The notes under the pieces are model-generated. The model was not told the origin of the DNA. It saw only the letters and a program-made list of their open reading frames with translations, and ran no database searches. Below are positions 38 through 5,007 of a DNA stretch of 5,007 nucleotides, one piece after another. Source of the stretch: Actinomycetes bacterium. GTDB lineage: Bacteria > Actinomycetota > Acidimicrobiia > Acidimicrobiales > RAAP-2. Numbering within the stretch: the stretch's first letter is position 1; each line of letters begins with the position of its first letter. Where the stretch lies: contig JAJYYT010000183.1 of the NCBI GenBank assembly GCA_021800645.1, forward strand, positions 1-5,007, written 5' to 3'. Made by a program: the position numbers and the translations under genes.

Positions 38-970
38 TCAGCCCGCCCTGCTCGGCGGGATCGCCACGCGCATGAGGTCTGCGGCTGCGACCACGTCCCC
101 GGAGAACGCGGCTGCGGCCTCCTCCAGAAGGGTGCTCACGTCTGGGTAACGCTGCGAGAAGTGGGTGATGAGAAGGCGACGGGCCCCCGCCTCGGCGGCG
201 AGCCGGCCGGCCTGGGAGGCGGTGAGGTGGCCGTACGCGGCGGCAAGGTCCGCCTCCGCCGAGGCGAAGGTCGCTTCGCAGACGAGGAGGTCAGCACCGG
301 AAGCGAGCTCGACGGCGCCGTCGCACCAGGCGGTGTCCATCACGAACGCCACGACCTGTCCACGACGGACGACGCTCATCTCTTCGAGCTCGATCCGGCG
401 CCCTCCGACGACGACCGCGCCTTCGCGCTCGAGCCGTCCGACGTCCGCCCCTGCGATCCCCGCTCGGGCGAGCCGCTCAGGAAGCATCCTGCGACCTGGG
501 CGCTCTTCCACGCGCCAGCCGATCGTCTCGACGGAGTGGCGGAGCGCGGCCGCCCTGAGGGCCCAGTGGCCCGCGTCGTCCACGGTGAGGAGCCCACGAC
601 CTGCAGCCTCGGCGCCGACCGGCAGCAGGCGGAGGTCGAGCCTGTCATCGAAGACGGACGCGTGCCGGAGCCTGTCGACGTACACCGCCCCGGATGCCGG
701 GAAGCTGAGCGCGACAGGACGGGTCACGCCGTCGAGCGACAGGCGCTGCAGCACGCCTGGCAGGCCGAGACAGTGGTCGCCGTGGAAGTGCGTGATGCAG
801 ATCCTCGTCACCGCGGACGCGCGGACGCCCGCGAAGAGCAGCTGGCGCTGGGTCCCCTCGCCCGGATCGAACACCACCCCGTCGTCGTCCCAGCGCAGGA
901 AGTAGCCGTTGTGGTTCCTCTCGCGCGTCGGCACCTGGCTGGCGGTCCCGAGGACCACGAGCTCGCGCAC
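38..970 (-). CDS. rnz: ribonuclease Z (tRNA 3' endonuclease)
   Basis: This 310-residue metallo-beta-lactamase-fold endonuclease cleaves 3' trailers from pre-tRNAs, mainly those without an encoded CCA, in the cytoplasm. The family metal ligands are all visible: the THFHGDH motif gives H61, H63, D65 and H66, followed by H145 (LRHSVETIGW), D212 (VMDTAWC) and H270 (LLITHFSQRY). H248 in GHLTASQAG corresponds to the conserved catalytic histidine. The N-terminal strand and loop, GTASQVPTRERNHNGY (residues 8-23), is typical of bacterial RNase Z. Length matches the roughly 307-residue homodimeric bacterial type, not the long eukaryotic form. The start is GTG at 970: an in-frame TAG lies at 986-988, so nothing upstream is possible except a rare codon, and the family N-terminus fits exactly. 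No Shine-Dalgarno sequence precedes it. It lies 60 bp downstream of the collagen-like gene on the same strand and may be partly co-transcribed with it. No key residue is missing. Confidence 0.96.
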   Translation of the reverse strand: MRELVVLGTASQVPTRERNHNGYFLRWDDDGVVFDPGEGTQRQLLFAGVRASAVTRICITHFHGDHCLGLPGVLQRLSLDGVTRPVALSFPASGAVYVDRLRHASVFDDRLDLRLLPVGAEAAGRGLLTVDDAGHWALRAAALRHSVETIGWRVEERPGRRMLPERLARAGIAGADVGRLEREGAVVVGGRRIELEEMSVVRRGQVVAFVMDTAWCDGAVELASGADLLVCEATFASAEADLAAAYGHLTASQAGRLAAEAGARRLLITHFSQRYPDVSTLLEEAAAAFSGDVVAAADLMRVAIPPSRAG

Positions 971-1030: not shown

Positions 1031-2035
1031 TCATGTGAAGTGCCCCGCTCCCTTCGCACAGATCGCGTAGACCGTCACCGTCGCGGACTTCGCTGTCGCG
1101 TTGGTCACTGACACCCCCCATTCCCAGGTCGTCCCCGCCAGGACCGGTCCGTCGTTCTGCGCGGCATGCACCTGGTCCACGCTGCTCGTGTACCCGCCGC
1201 CCGTGACGGCGTACCCTGCCGGACAGGCGGCGACGCCGCTGCCCACGCCCGGGTTGGTGGTGGAGGCCGCACCTGCGACGCTGAACGTCGCCCTGTCGAC
1301 CAGCACTGTCTGGGTGGCCGGAGACGTGGTCGTAGCGCCGGCTGCGCCCTTGGCCGCGAGCAGCGCCCAGCTCGACGTTGTGGTCGTGGGCCTGCCGACG
1401 TTCCGTGTCGTGAGCGACACGTAGCTCGAGCCTGTCTCGGAGACGGCGTCGCCCCGTGTGTAGGTGGCGACGGGGCTGTACGTGCCCTTCCAGACGAGCC
1501 CCGGCGGCCCGACGAGGCTCGTCCCGGCGGCGGGCCACCGCCCGAAGGTCTTCGGCCCGTAGAGCGAGACGGTCGAGGTGTCCAGGTAGAAGTCCCCTGT
1601 CGAGCCCTGGGTGGTCGGAGGCGTCGAGCCGCTCAGGATGGACGTGCCGGGTGTGCCCTTCGGACCCGCCGGTCCGGCAGGCCCACGCGCACCTTGCGGA
1701 CCTCGTGGACCCGGCGCACCCCTCGCGCCGATGAGGCTCCTGCCGGCCCCCCAGGGATGCAGATGCCCCAATGTCTTGGGCCCGAAGAGCACGCCTCTCG
1801 TGGTGTCCAGGTAGAAGTCCCCTGTGGTGCCCACCGCGTTGTTGGGCAGGCCCGTCCCGCCCAGGACTGCGTCGCCCAACCTGCCCGAGAGGAACCCCAG
1901 GAGGTGGACGCCGGTCGCCGTGGCACCCGGCTTGGCCGCCGTGCCCGCGTAGGACGACGCGCCGTAGGCCAGCGCGCCGCCGAGCGCGGCGGCGCCCGCT
2001 GCGAAGATCGCAAGAGACTTGCTCAGTTTCATCAT
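1031..2035 (-). CDS. secreted collagen-like protein with duplicated GDFYLDT/YGPKT modules
   Basis: This is a 334-residue predicted exported protein. Residues 1-33 form a signal peptide: MMKLSK, then a long Ala/Gly/Leu core, with probable cleavage near residues 26-34. Residues 56-103 and 133-176 are two copies of a module containing TGDFYLDT, then (F/Y)GPKT, then SL(I/V)G. Between them, residues 103-130 are nine uninterrupted Gly-X-Y triplets (GAR GAP GPR GPQ GAR GPA GPA GPK GTP). Residues 180-230 (VWKGTYSPVATYTRGDAV...SSYVSL...WALLAAKG) resemble the small CBM5/12-like module common in phage tail fibres and bacterial collagen-like proteins. Residues 271-327 form a C-terminal domain (CPAGYAVTGGGY...VTVYAICA) holding the only two cysteines, C271 and C326, probably disulphide-bonded. 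No sortase motif or C-terminal membrane anchor is present, so it is probably released or held noncovalently. The start at ATG 2035 is chosen because AAGGGAG lies 7 nt upstream and the signal peptide starts there; ATG 2032 is the alternative. Export and domains are inferred from sequence; function is unknown, with surface adhesion or a spore/envelope filament as possibilities. Confidence 0.85.
   Translation of the reverse strand: MMKLSKSLAIFAAGAAALGGALAYGASSYAGTAAKPGATATGVHLLGFLSGRLGDAVLGGTGLPNNAVGTTGDFYLDTTRGVLFGPKTLGHLHPWGAGRSLIGARGAPGPRGPQGARGPAGPAGPKGTPGTSILSGSTPPTTQGSTGDFYLDTSTVSLYGPKTFGRWPAAGTSLVGPPGLVWKGTYSPVATYTRGDAVSETGSSYVSLTTRNVGRPTTTTSSWALLAAKGAAGATTTSPATQTVLVDRATFSVAGAASTTNPGVGSGVAACPAGYAVTGGGYTSSVDQVHAAQNDGPVLAGTTWEWGVSVTNATAKSATVTVYAICAKGAGHFT
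1577..1600 (-). repeat. 24-bp direct repeat, copy 2 (codes VGDFYLDT-type motif)
   Basis: These 24 bases are identical to 1802-1825, exactly 225 bp (75 codons) away and in the same reading frame. They encode the central TGDFYLDT motif of the second module in the collagen-like protein. Identity over 24 bases, while the flanks differ, marks a recent duplication, gene conversion or strong constraint. Confidence 0.8.
1802..1825 (-). repeat. 24-bp direct repeat, copy 1
   Basis: This is the partner of 1577-1600, in the first GDFYLDT module, upstream of the Gly-X-Y stretch in transcription order. It is the anchor of the internal modular duplication and a possible site for slipped or homologous rearrangement that would delete or add a 75-codon unit. 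Confidence 0.8.
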
Positions 2036-2042
2036 CGTTCGT

Positions 2043-2465: not shown

Positions 2466-2852
2466 GTGAGCACCACCATGTACGAGCGAGTGGGTGGCGA
2501 GGCGTTCTTCACGTCTCTGGTGGACCGCTTCTACGAAGGGGTCGCCTCTGACCCCGTGCTCCGCCCGCTCTACCCCGAGGACCTCCAGGCGCCAAAGGAG
2601 CATCTGCGACTGTTCCTCGTCCAGTACTGGGGAGGTCCGCGCACCTACGAGGAGCGCCGCGGTCATCCACGGTTGCGCATGCGCCACGCGCCGTTCGCCA
2701 TCGGGCTCGCGGAGCGCGACGCATGGCTGCGCCTGATGCTCGCGGCGCTCTCCGACGCAGGGATCGGCGAGGAGGACGAAGCGCAGATGGCCGAGTACTT
2801 CCGTGCCGCGGCGACCCAGCTGATCAACCAGGCCGGGCGGCGACCCAGCTGA
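2466..2852 (+). CDS. glbO: group II truncated haemoglobin (TrHbO)
   Basis: This 128-residue 2-on-2 globin binds haem. The group II family is linked to oxygen binding, peroxide or NO/reactive-species chemistry and redox sensing in the cytoplasm or at the membrane. Visible landmarks are YERVGGEAFF at the N-terminus, Y23 (B10), Y36 (CD1, in LYPED), the block QYWGGPRTYEERRGHPRLRMRHAPF with proximal histidine H74 (F8), and W87 (G8, the group II hallmark). In Mycobacterium tuberculosis trHbO the same Tyr, His and Trp positions shape the haem pocket, and similarity by eye is high along the whole length. The GTG at 2466 is preferred because the promoter-like TAGCTT fits a leaderless start there. ATG 2478 is the alternative and would give 124 residues, still starting before the globin core. 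The last residues (AGRRPS) and the stop lie in a 29-bp tandem duplication. It is divergent from tRNA-Gly and convergent with the YbjQ-like operon, with a 35-bp gap, so it is probably monocistronic. Confidence 0.95.
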   Translation: MSTTMYERVGGEAFFTSLVDRFYEGVASDPVLRPLYPEDLQAPKEHLRLFLVQYWGGPRTYEERRGHPRLRMRHAPFAIGLAERDAWLRLMLAALSDAGIGEEDEAQMAEYFRAAATQLINQAGRRPS

Positions 2853-2880
2853 TCAACCAGGCCGGGCGGCGACCCGGCTG
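2811..2880. repeat. 29-bp tandem repeat across the globin stop codon
   Basis: Two perfect 29-bp copies (2811-2839 and 2840-2868) are followed by a partial third copy starting at 2869 that differs at 2876 (g for a). The globin reading frame enters copy 1, crosses into copy 2 and stops at TGA 2850-2852. Because 29 is not a multiple of 3, the TGA present in each copy falls into frame only after the shift. Confidence 0.9.
2861..2878. terminator. possible bidirectional terminator between convergent genes
   Basis: A perfect 6-bp stem (gccggg 2861-2866, cccggc 2873-2878) with a 6-nt loop lies in the 35-bp gap between the globin stop and the YbjQ-like gene stop. It is symmetrical, so it could act on both strands. 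No T-run follows on either side. The stem exists only at this copy of the 29-bp repeat: in the upstream copies the base equivalent to 2876 is a, which breaks it. Confidence 0.4.
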
Positions 2881-2887
2881 ACGGACG

Positions 2888-3727
2888 TCACTCGCCTCCG
2901 GCGCTGCGGAGGCTCTTCACCTCGAACAACCGCACCCGTTCGTCGAGGGGGACCACCATCTCCGGCGCGATGGAACGGTGCGCGGCTGTGCGCAGGTGCA
3001 CCCCGGTGCCGATCGCGACGAACTGGATCACCCTCATGCTCGAGCTCGCTTTGCCCTCGCGCAGCTTCACCGCGACGATGCCTTCCGCTTTCATCGTGGC
3101 GCCGGAGCGCTGCATGCGTTCCATCGCGCGTTCGCGCGCCAGGTAGAGCGCCTGCGTCAGGTTCGGAAGCTCGACGTTTTGGCCCTGTTGCGCCGCCCAC
3201 TCGCGTGCGGTCCGGCGCGGGGCGATCACGAAGCTCGCGCCGGCGGCGAGACCGAGCGGCCACCACCCCGCGCGGGTGAGGAGCACGAAGTCGCGCGCGG
3301 AGAGATCCGAGACGAATTCGAAGTGGTGCGAGCGCGCGTCCGTGCGGCGCACCGCCGTCCCGGTCAGCTCGAGAGACACGTGGTGGGAGGACACCCGCAG
3401 GCCCACGTCGACACCGAGCACTCCTGAGGCTCCTGCCTGCTCACAGGACTGCCGGAGCAGCTTCGCGGCGTGGTCCACCGCCCCGGTGAACGCCGCCGAC
3501 GCCTCCTGCACCTCTCCGGTGGTCCATTGCCACACGCCCCAGGGGATCGACCACCACGAGATGCCGTAGACGAGGTCGACCGGCTCCCAACCAGCGGAGT
3601 GGAGGAGCAGGGTCTCGTCGATCGTGAGGTCCGACGTGGTGCCGTGCGGGCCGGCTGCCCGGTCCGCACCGCCAGGCGAGGCGGACAGCGCCGAGACCGC
3701 CTGCCGAACCTCGTCGCGAAGCCTCAC
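2888..3727 (-). CDS. tandem YbjQ-like (DUF74, putative heavy-metal-binding) domain protein
   Basis: This 279-residue protein has two YbjQ-like units. Unit 1 spans about residues 40-128 (LLHSAGWEPVDLVYG..., AGASGVLGVDV, VSLELTGTAVR). Unit 2 spans about 147-245 (FVLLTRAGWWPLGLAAG..., QNVELPNLTQALYLARERAMERM, EGIVAVKL, IQFVAIGTGVHL). Unit 2 keeps the characteristic helix and the 'G-I-V-x-V-x-L' strand of the YbjQ/DUF74 fold. The tail, about 246-279, ends with a P-x-x-x-V-P-L-D motif shared with the upstream paralogue. A low-complexity N-terminus (residues 15-30) precedes unit 1. There is no signal peptide or clear membrane span, so it is probably cytoplasmic. The GTG start at 3727 is supported by GAGGGA 5-6 nt upstream. 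It lies 25 bp after the stop of the preceding gene and is last in the operon. The 'heavy-metal-binding' name is a family label; I see no Cys-rich metal site and do not know the function. Confidence 0.85.
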   Translation of the reverse strand: MRLRDEVRQAVSALSASPGGADRAAGPHGTTSDLTIDETLLLHSAGWEPVDLVYGISWWSIPWGVWQWTTGEVQEASAAFTGAVDHAAKLLRQSCEQAGASGVLGVDVGLRVSSHHVSLELTGTAVRRTDARSHHFEFVSDLSARDFVLLTRAGWWPLGLAAGASFVIAPRRTAREWAAQQGQNVELPNLTQALYLARERAMERMQRSGATMKAEGIVAVKLREGKASSSMRVIQFVAIGTGVHLRTAAHRSIAPEMVVPLDERVRLFEVKSLRSAGGE

Positions 3728-3732
3728 GTCGT

Positions 3733-3738
3733 TCCCTC
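3733..3738 (-). promoter_or_regulatory. ribosome binding site of the distal YbjQ-like gene
   Basis: GAGGGA on the minus strand lies 5 nt before the GTG at 3727, inside the 25-bp gap after the upstream gene. It fixes the GTG as start and allows independent reinitiation. Confidence 0.6.
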
Positions 3739-3752
3739 AGCGCTCCTGCTCG

Positions 3753-4688
3753 TCACGTCAACCGGACGACGGGGACCGCTTCGGGCAGCGGGTCGAACTC
3801 CTTGAACCGCCGAACCCTGTTGCCCTTCAGCGTGCACTGGATCGAGAGGTCGCCCTCCCCGATCTCGCGCTCCGAGCGCTCCAAGGTCGCGCCGTGGAGG
3901 AGGTCGGTGCCGAGCTGGGAGCGGACGCGCTCGCGAGCGATGCGCCGAGCCGCAGCCTCGGCACGGTTCACCTGGTCCACCGGACCGACGCCGGACACCC
4001 CCGCAGCGCCCTGGCCGTACCAGGTGCCGACGCCGGATCCCGCGAGCTGATAGTGGGTGATGCAGTAGCCCAGCATCCGGACGGCGCTCAGCGTGGCGAC
4101 CACCGAGACCGGAGCGAACCCGGCCTCGATGAGCTTCGCAAGCCGCTGGCCCGAGAGGTACGTGCTGAAGGGGGTCGCAGGGCGCGGGATGTCTGGGACC
4201 ACGACCGCGGTGCCACTTGCGGAGAATTCGACCATCGCGCCGCCGACGAGCGGGCGCATGGCATCGAGGACGCCGACGACGCCGGTCGCGCCCAGAGCCT
4301 TCGCCTCTTCGACCATTCGCCCGGTCGCGAGCCCCCATCCCGACGCCCAGCTGTCCTCGAGCCATGTGAGCTCGTAGTTCGCGCCGTACATGCGGTGCTC
4401 GGCGCTCACGAAGCCGTGCGGGCATTGCCACTGCTCGACGTACTGCCCGCGGCGCTGCGGCGCGCTCGTCCAGCCGCCGCCGAACCCGCCCAACCCCATG
4501 CCGAACCCGCCTGTGGTCATGTACCAGCTCCACTGCAGGACCGCGTAGCCCTGGACGTAGCCCACCGGCTGCATCCCCATGTCCAGGCACGACGCGAAGT
4601 CGGCGACGGAGAGGCCTGACGACCACGCCCCTTCGGCGAGCCGACGAGTGGCCGCCTCGGGGAGCCCGTTACCGGCTGTCGAGGCCAT
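3753..4688 (-). CDS. divergent tandem YbjQ-like protein with Gly/aromatic-rich insert
   Basis: This 311-residue protein is related to both neighbours. Unit 1 begins near residue 30 (DFASCLDMGMQPVGYVQG) and resumes at about 123-164 with GRMVEEAKALGATGVVGVLD and VEFSASGTAVVVP, a good YbjQ-like helix-strand pair. Between them (about 52-118) is an insert rich in Gly, Trp and Tyr, with GGFGMGLGGFGGGW (60-73), EQWQCPHG (85-92) and WLEDSWASGWG (109-119). Unit 2, about 182-295 (RLAKLIEAGFAPVSVVATLSAVRMLGYCITH, then a long helix RAEAAARRIARERVRSQLG, then LSIQCTLKGNRV), follows the same order but has lost the NVELPN and TQA motifs. The ATG at 4688 overlaps the preceding stop as TGATG, pointing to translational coupling. 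An in-frame upstream extension to 4988 exists but would overlap the preceding gene and is Arg/Pro-rich shadow sequence. No signal peptide is evident; the hydrophobic stretch near 44-57 is short. Function unknown. Confidence 0.8.
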   Translation of the reverse strand: MASTAGNGLPEAATRRLAEGAWSSGLSVADFASCLDMGMQPVGYVQGYAVLQWSWYMTTGGFGMGLGGFGGGWTSAPQRRGQYVEQWQCPHGFVSAEHRMYGANYELTWLEDSWASGWGLATGRMVEEAKALGATGVVGVLDAMRPLVGGAMVEFSASGTAVVVPDIPRPATPFSTYLSGQRLAKLIEAGFAPVSVVATLSAVRMLGYCITHYQLAGSGVGTWYGQGAAGVSGVGPVDQVNRAEAAARRIARERVRSQLGTDLLHGATLERSEREIGEGDLSIQCTLKGNRVRRFKEFDPLPEAVPVVRLT

Positions 4689-5007
4689 CAGCCGTCGAGA
4701 GAGATGATCGTCTTCGGCTGCGGGATCGTGTGGTCGCCTTCGGAGCGAGCGACCGCGGTCCCAAGCGAGAGGAATTCGATCGTGTGGTCGCCCCACATGT
4801 GGCTCTTCTCCTCGAGCCGTACCCCGACGATCCCCGTCGCGCCGAGCTCGTTCGCCTCGTCCTGCATCCGGGTCATCGCCAGCTCGCGGGCTTCGTAGAG
4901 CGCCTGGGTGAAATTCGGCAGCTCGACGTTGCGGCCCGTGCTGCGCAGCGTCTGACCGACTCCGCGATGGGCGATGTGGTAGACGCACGTCCCCATCACG
5001 AGCCCGA
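4688..5007 (-). CDS. YbjQ-like domain protein, 5' end beyond window
   Basis: This is the C-terminal 105 residues of a gene whose start lies off the right edge. The frame is open to position 5007, and the upstream residues GLV-MGTCVY align with GLAAGASFVI of the 2888-3727 protein, so the GTG/ATG at 4994-4999 is an internal codon. It contains the best YbjQ-like match in the window: RNVELPNFTQALYEARELAMTRM, EANELGATGIVGVRLEE and IEFLSLGTAVARSE, then the tail TIPQPKTIISLDG resembling the end of the distal paralogue. It also aligns with that gene at DNA level (compare 3144-3185 with 4896-4937). Its TGA overlaps the next ATG by one base. By analogy with its neighbours a second YbjQ-like unit probably precedes it, but that is not visible. 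Confidence 0.85.
   Translation of the reverse strand, partial: GLVMGTCVYHIAHRGVGQTLRSTGRNVELPNFTQALYEARELAMTRMQDEANELGATGIVGVRLEEKSHMWGDHTIEFLSLGTAVARSEGDHTIPQPKTIISLDG

What the first reader, a model, noticed from the sequence alone, without database searches (positions are those of the whole stretch)
2888..5007. Operon of three paralogous tandem YbjQ-like proteins
Three consecutive genes, with a TGATG overlap and then a 25-bp gap, encode proteins built from YbjQ/DUF74-like units. Five units are visible and a sixth is likely off the edge. Typical YbjQ proteins, such as the E. coli one, are about 107 residues with one domain and form a pentamer in known structures of the family. Here two units are fused per chain and the chains are diverged from one another. 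That would suit a hetero-oligomeric ring or shell built from duplicated subunits. The biochemical role of the family is unknown, so an operon of fused, diverged copies is a good entry point.
Basis: partly seen in the sequence, partly recalled or inferred. Interest (0 to 1): 0.7.

Follow-up and report, generated by a model that had tools for sequence, protein, structure and literature searches.

The report
Conserved operon of tandem YbjQ proteins
The three neighbouring genes are real double-unit relatives of a small, poorly understood bacterial protein, and with a fourth small gene they form a conserved set in many soil bacteria whose job is unknown but may lie in looking after the cell membrane.

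Summary
Genes C (2888-3727), B (3753-4688) and the end of A (4688-5007), minus strand, encode YbjQ-type proteins (PF01906 over cut-off in all three). Profile comparison shows six homologous units, two per chain. X-A-B-C is the commonest order: 84 of 131 gene-called loci. X lies within 250 bp of A in 86 of 105 distinct loci, further off in 10. In 396 genomes of the phylum, all 8 with X are among the 11 with A. Streptomyces has B'-A-X; mycobacteria have A plus a DUF5073 protein. Function is not shown. pspA (ESCRT-III-like membrane repair) is directly upstream of X in 9 of 107 distinct loci; the 8 placed on a tree lie in one clade, none in the clade of the window's genus. Best reading: a multi-subunit tandem-YbjQ assembly with partner X acting at the membrane; metal binding is the main rival. 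New variant of a known kind.

The parts
2888..3727 (-). Gene C: tandem YbjQ-like protein, 279 aa, last gene of the operon
   Evidence: ORF; PF01906 4.4e-11, two stretches; PF01906 in 17 of 17 aligned C proteins, the window's included
3338..3637 (-). Unit C_N (approximate borders)
   Evidence: profile-profile with A_N 7.9e-19, C_C 7.4e-16
2978..3319 (-). Unit C_C (approximate borders)
   Evidence: profile-profile with A_C 9e-42
3753..4688 (-). Gene B: tandem YbjQ-like protein, 311 aa, with an inserted CPHG region; conserved C89, H91, H98, C209
   Evidence: ORF; PF01906 5.2e-6, 18 of 18 aligned B proteins, the window's included; C89 66, H91 63, H98 65, C209 67 of 67 aligned B proteins
4194..4625 (-). 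Unit B_N (approximate borders, with insertion)
   Evidence: profile-profile with A_N 7.1e-19
3789..4181 (-). Unit B_C (approximate borders), the most diverged unit
   Evidence: profile-profile with A_C 1e-9, A_N 5e-7, C_C 5.7e-7, C_N 4.6e-6; B_N only 1.8e-3
4688..5007 (-). C-terminal unit of gene A; the rest of A lies on L005:9802-9923 and L006:8214-8729
   Evidence: PF01906 1.1e-11; contig ends overlap 82 of 91 bases; synteny in L019
4686..4690 (-). TGATG overlap of the A stop and the B start
   Evidence: sequence; A-B gap of -1 or -4 in 23 of 33 loci

Best explanation
The window holds three of the four genes (A, B, C) of a conserved operon X-A-B-C. Shown: three diverged proteins of two YbjQ-type units each, kept together with the small protein X in Acidimicrobiia and, in reduced or permuted form, in other Actinomycetota and Dormibacterota. 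Inferred: the chains assemble through their YbjQ units into one large hetero-oligomer (for example stacked pseudo-pentamers, or an A-B-C pseudo-hexamer). A is the core, B and C are lineage-specific additions, and X is the adaptor that ties the assembly to the inner face of the cell membrane. Inferred with less certainty: the assembly works with PspA, the ESCRT-III-like membrane-repair protein, as a scaffold or sensor in membrane maintenance.
For: Six homologous units. Order X>A>B>C in 84 of 131 gene-called loci, with varied flanks. X within 250 bp of the best A gene in 86 of 105 distinct loci and 0.3-2.5 kb away on the same strand in 10 more, most of these with another tandem-YbjQ gene between. 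All 8 X genomes lie among the 11 A genomes of 396, hypergeometric 1.2e-14, not corrected for kinship. X-A also on an Aulosira (cyanobacterial) plasmid. pspA directly upstream of X on the same strand in 9 of 107 distinct loci, with gaps of -4 to 7 bp in the 7 where X was called, although the genomes with pspA hold only 1-2 copies (54 of 61 genomes); PspA_IM30 is the commonest family, 7 of 62, among operon-like neighbours scanned. The mycobacterial counterpart of X matches Rv1761c, which a membrane-protein expression screen found overexpressed in the membrane fraction (PMC2396618, passages). Rv1762c was found in large-particle preparations (PMC8635971) and is described as lying in a membrane fraction (PMC9846648).
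Against: No pspA stands beside the module in the clade of the window's genus (0 of 17 rows; the window's own A is too short to be on the tree); G000's two pspA genes are on other contigs. The 8 pspA-linked rows on the tree all lie in one clade of 57 and may reflect one ancestral join; the ninth, L048, was not on the tree. X of the window has no Pfam match, and the likeness of X to the DUF5073 protein is modest (3.5e-6, probability 88, with 12 divergent X; 1.3e-4, probability 54, with all 54; nothing significant by pairwise BLASTP). Other neighbours point elsewhere: MoxR-like/VWA_CoxE in 2 distinct loci, WS/DGAT beside mycobacterial A. No structure or oligomer was computed. That Rv1762c is an A homologue was not tested by sequence.
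Confidence: 0.4

Rival explanations
1. Metal-handling complex: the tandem YbjQ assembly binds a transition metal, as the family name 'putative heavy-metal-binding' says, and serves metal storage, buffering or insertion.
For: B keeps C89 (66), H91 (63), H98 (65) and C209 (67) of 67; A keeps C194, H197, H200, H256, H261 and E264 in all 69 aligned. AAA (MoxR-like, my label) and VWA_CoxE genes lie directly upstream in Yinghuangia and, fused, in L129; MoxR-CoxE pairs are recalled, not tested, as helpers of metal-site assembly. PMC9846648 suggests metal transport for Rv1762c (speculation in that paper).
Against: The family name rests on no assay found here. The B residues lie in a B-specific insertion and in the other unit, and without a structure it is unknown whether they meet. 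Single-unit YbjQ proteins were not checked for these residues. The AAA/CoxE neighbours occur in only 2 distinct loci.
Confidence: 0.25
2. Lipid-storage or acyl-lipid accessory complex, as suggested by WS/DGAT wax-ester synthase genes beside A and its partner in mycobacteria.
For: A WS/DGAT gene is the neighbour in L143, L144 and L145, same strand and upstream of A in the last two (Pfam confirmed in L144, and in two of the proteins scanned; L143 judged by its sequence start).
Against: Seen only in these three genomes of one genus; other flanks vary.
Confidence: 0.08
3. Cargo or shell part of a nanocompartment, or a free large particle of its own, unrelated to membranes.
For: Rv1762c was consistently found in purified nanocompartment preparations (PMC8635971, passage); YbjQ units form rings.
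Against: Co-purification in an ultracentrifugation fraction may mean only that the particle is large. No encapsulin is among the 25 of 74 neighbour families shown; no dedicated encapsulin search was made.
Confidence: 0.12
4. The three genes are a recent local duplication without a shared function.
For: All units are homologous.
Against: On the unit tree five of the six unit types form one group each across loci, A_C being the exception. The order is kept in 84 of 131 loci.
Confidence: 0.03

Closest known systems
YbjQ / UPF0145 / DUF74 (Pfam PF01906), e.g. PDB 1y2i, 2gtc, 1vr4
   Same: Unit family by sequence: PF01906 over cut-off; A profile hits 1y2i 2e-7, B 6e-5, C 2gtc 2e-5. Solved members are pentamers.
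   Different: Two diverged units per chain, three chains per operon, an insertion in B, and a small partner X. Solved members have one domain of 103-107 residues (table passage).
Mycobacterial Rv1762c-Rv1761c pair
   Same: A-type tandem YbjQ gene beside a small partner gene: L144/L145 A is 261 aa, Rv1762c is 789 bp with two such domains (PMC9846648), and the L144 partner matches PDB 2k3m Rv1761c at 1.8e-51.
   Different: No B or C beside it in L143-L145; the partner is DUF5073 and only distantly like X. That Rv1762c is the A homologue is inferred from length, domain count and neighbour, not from its sequence.
PSP system (PspA with PspAA, PspAB, PspC, LiaI/LiaF and other partners; PMC11237479)
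   Same: pspA lies directly upstream of X in 9 of 107 distinct module loci.
   Different: No pspA in the window's operon. X does not match PspAA: Pfam holds PspAA (found in L125) and none of 54 X proteins hits it. Terms YbjQ and MoxR: 0 occurrences in the survey's main text.
C2CD5 YbjQ-like domain (Pfam PF23025)
   Same: Weak Pfam hits in 4 of 17 C and 3 of 18 B proteins.
   Different: Best E 0.00049; no C2 domain reported by Pfam for A, B or C of the window.

Membership tests
YbjQ_1 (PF01906) | Match to the family model over its curated cut-off | tested here: met
   A part, B and C all over 23 bits
YbjQ_1 (PF01906) | Every unit recognisable as a YbjQ unit | tested here: met
   Five unit types clear; B_C only by profile-profile comparison, 1e-9 to 4.6e-6 with units of A and C
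YbjQ_1 (PF01906) | Single-domain chain of about 105 residues, as in the solved members | tested here: not met
   279 and 311 aa, two units per chain; so a tandem branch of the family
YbjQ_1 (PF01906) | Pentameric ring | not testable with these tools
   Structure prediction switched off
YbjQ_1 (PF01906) | Heavy-metal binding | not testable with these tools
   Conserved Cys/His in A and B only
PSP (phage shock protein) system | pspA in the same operon | tested here: not met
   Genome-wide PF04012 search of G000 finds only C89 and C41. Met in 9 of 107 distinct loci of relatives
PSP partner domain PspAA (PF22743) | X matches PspAA | tested here: not met
   No hit among 54 X proteins at 0.05
DUF5073 (PF16817) | X of this genome matches the model | tested here: not met
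   No family for the window's X at E 1; profile comparison 3.5e-6 with divergent X leaves distant kinship open
Known anti-phage defence | PADLOC model match of X, A, B or C | tested here: not met
   No families for X, A (from L058), B, C at 0.01

The most novel reading that the evidence does not exclude
An actinobacterial ESCRT-III (PspA) companion machine: a hetero-oligomeric ring of tandem YbjQ chains, A-B-C, anchored through the small protein X, which guides or regulates PspA polymers on the cell membrane. This would be the first assigned function for a branch of the YbjQ family, with the A-X core reaching from cyanobacteria to mycobacteria.
Probability: 0.25. Interest if true: 0.78.

Novelty: new variant of a known kind. 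Interest (0 to 1): 0.52.

Why it matters
YbjQ is a widespread family with solved pentameric structures and no job that the searches here could find. Here it appears as a four-gene system with a steady partner, X, and in some genomes a well-studied neighbour, PspA. That turns an open question (what do YbjQ rings do?) into concrete tests: which chains assemble, whether X binds membranes or A, and whether PspA takes part. The mycobacterial pair Rv1762c/Rv1761c appears to be the reduced form of the same module.

Tried and rejected
Rejected: X as PspAA or any Pfam family; X as a seventh YbjQ unit (profile E 0.033 or worse against all six); phage origin (115 pattern hits in viral contigs, none confirmed; three plasmid records do carry relatives); anti-phage defence. 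Thiamin phosphate synthase: PMC7084401 gives that activity to YbjQ, but its reference 31 is about YjbQ (passages; that YjbQ is another family is recalled). PMC5198076 lists a UPF0145 gene only as a neighbour in a transposon table (passage). PMC6414554 lists E. coli YbjQ among proteins rising in persister recovery (table passage): suggestive, no mechanism. Led nowhere: Rfam upstream of the operon, promoter/terminator scan, weak FliE and ribosomal P0 hits, weak PADLOC coiled-coil hits of PspA. The first hhalign run was spoiled by a stale output file and redone. My gene finder is home-made; it missed X in several loci (rescued by six-frame search) and called no module in 3 of 131 loci. The count of 84 of 131 includes near-duplicate loci from two collections. 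Distinct counts (107, 105) differ because loci are merged by different lengths of A. One search gave 93 of 105 with X beside any gene that the A model fits best, which counts B'-type genes as A, made while checking this report, used the best A gene alone: 86 within 250 bp, 10 further off (L045, L048, L123, L133, L135-L140), 9 without (L032, L052, L092, L118, L129, L141, L143-L145; of these L092 begins about 100 bp before A and L143-L145 have the DUF5073-type protein). Tree caveats: long branches, few columns, quick method. One search aligned unrelated neighbours only to pass 62 of the 65 listed to one scan (three DUF5073-type proteins left out). DUF5073 was scanned in L144 alone; L143 and L145 were judged by likeness (sequences).

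Papers: PMC11237479, PMC9239133, PMC4092069, PMC5198076, PMC6414554, PMC7084401, PMC8635971, PMC9846648 and PMC2396618: passages found by search terms only. PMC2954204: passages and one section. All others: search listings only. The statement that no function is in print for YbjQ, and no YbjQ-PspA link, rests, limited to this open library and to main texts.

Full report
What is in the window. On the minus strand lie gene C (2888-3727), gene B (3753-4688) and the 3' part of gene A (from 4688 to beyond 5007). All three match PF01906 over its cut-off. A PF01906 search of the whole genome finds four matches: these three and one at the end of contig C190. C190 ends inside a gene whose product continues into A: 82 of 91 bases agree in the overlap, and in the sister genome G001 three of the four genes before X on C190, then X, A, B, C and the globin gene, follow each other on one contig (L019). 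A is therefore about 288 aa with two units. The join stays an inference, since G005, G011 and G019 carry more than one cluster.

Six units. Profiles of the six halves, from 66 to 69 proteins each, align with each other with E 4.6e-6 or better in 14 of 15 pairs; B_N with B_C gives 1.8e-3. On a tree with 11 single-unit YbjQ proteins, five of six unit types form one group each; A_C does not, with weak support for its split. A evolves slowly, B and C faster, by branch length. Sequence search of solved structures gives YbjQ family members alone below E 0.05 for A, B and C.

The fourth gene. Upstream of A stands X, about 135 aa, overlapping A by 4 bp in 22 of 29 loci with both. The window's X matches no Pfam or NCBIfam family at E 1; the best hit among 20 X proteins is DUF7433, 3e-4, in 2 of them. 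Searching 5.8 billion proteins with X gave 264 relatives among the 7999 candidates scored, and the 120 listed carry no Pfam domain. X is not a YbjQ unit.

Conservation. Of 131 gene-called loci, 84 read X>A>B>C (near-duplicates included). X lies within 250 bp of the best A gene in 86 of 105 distinct loci, further off on the same strand in 10, and is not found on that strand in 9. In 396 genomes drawn evenly from the phylum, 17 have A-profile hits at 1e-10; 11 of them exceed 250 bits, the other 6 are one-unit hits near 42 bits. X is found in 8 of 396, all among the 11; hypergeometric 1.2e-14, with kinship not corrected. In 7 of the 8, X and A lie within about 1.2 kb, in four of these with another tandem-YbjQ gene between them; in G139 they are 40 kb apart (coordinates). 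The module appears in Acidimicrobiia, Dormiibacterota, Streptomyces, Yinghuangia and a Mycobacterium MAG, on two Streptomyces plasmids, where the record names the genes 'heavy metal-binding domain-containing protein' twice and 'hypothetical protein', and on a cyanobacterial plasmid. The protein search with A stopped at its ceiling of 8000 relatives. Flanking genes vary, so the module is the unit.

Neighbours as clues. pspA (PF04012, 6e-36 in L042) lies directly upstream of X on the same strand in 9 of 107 distinct loci (7 beside a called X; L124 and L048 after six-frame search); in L125 a PspA-PspAA gene is convergent. 54 of 61 genomes, the own one included, have pspA in 1-2 copies, so adjacency by chance should be rare. 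PspA_IM30 is the commonest family among 62 scanned operon-like neighbours (7), then SnoaL_2 (4). Against this: on the A tree the 8 pspA-linked rows placed lie in one clade of 57 and need 2 to 5 changes, and the clade of the window's genus, 17 rows, has none. AAA (MoxR-like) and VWA_CoxE genes precede the module in Yinghuangia and, fused, in L129. In L143-L145, which I take for mycobacteria, A is followed by a DUF5073-type protein with a 1-bp overlap, with a WS/DGAT gene as neighbour.

Link to studied proteins. The L144 partner matches Rv1761c (PDB 2k3m, 1.8e-51). Its neighbour in numbering, Rv1762c, is 789 bp with two putative heavy-metal-binding DUF74 domains (PMC9846648), so it is very probably the A homologue (inference; not compared by sequence). 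Rv1762c was consistently found in purified nanocompartment preparations (PMC8635971). Rv1761c was among the targets of a membrane-protein screen and was overexpressed in the membrane fraction (PMC2396618). Divergent X and the DUF5073-type proteins align at 3.5e-6, probability 88; all 54 X together at 1.3e-4.

Mechanism. Shown: units, operon, X-A linkage. Inferred: large hetero-oligomer through YbjQ units; five-fold symmetry of single-unit YbjQ cannot be filled by a whole number of two-unit chains in one ring, so either stacked rings or another symmetry, such as six units from A+B+C, is expected. Inferred with less certainty: membrane attachment through X, and work with PspA. Conserved Cys/His in B and A keep a metal role open. 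A relevant oddity of the family: in 1vr4 the subunits of one pentamer differ in fold (PMC2954204 section 17), which would suit diverged subunits with fixed roles; this is speculation.

Novelty. Members of a known domain family in a tandem, multi-gene form with a partner of no known family; two PSP surveys do not mention YbjQ (0 occurrences) or PF01906 (0, for PMC9239133) in their main texts. I rate it a new variant of a known kind, interest 0.52.

Noticed in passing
window 2808-2881: A 29-bp tandem repeat (2.6 copies, 97% matches) sits at the 3' end of the truncated-globin gene.
   Followed up: no
window 2466-2849 (+): A truncated haemoglobin gene (PF01152, 4e-32) lies convergent to the operon; a globin of the same cluster is found in 14 of the 40 loci clustered.
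   Followed up: partly
window 1034-2038 (-): Protein with a signal-like N-terminus and a short collagen-like stretch (Pfam Collagen 3e-4, below its cut-off).
   Followed up: no
window 127-149: Four of the nine differences between window and held assembly fall within 23 bases of the RNase Z-like gene.
   Followed up: no
L148:5827-6579: On the Aulosira plasmid the A-like gene looks interrupted, with X still directly upstream.
   Followed up: no
L118:2023-2424: A 134-aa protein without a significant Pfam match stands where X would be, before A-B-A'.
   Followed up: partly
L125:3100-3937: Two tandem X genes before A-B-A' in a Dormibacteraeota genome.
   Followed up: no
PMC7084401: That paper writes YbjQ where its reference is about YjbQ; the slip could spread as a false function for YbjQ.
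   Followed up: yes
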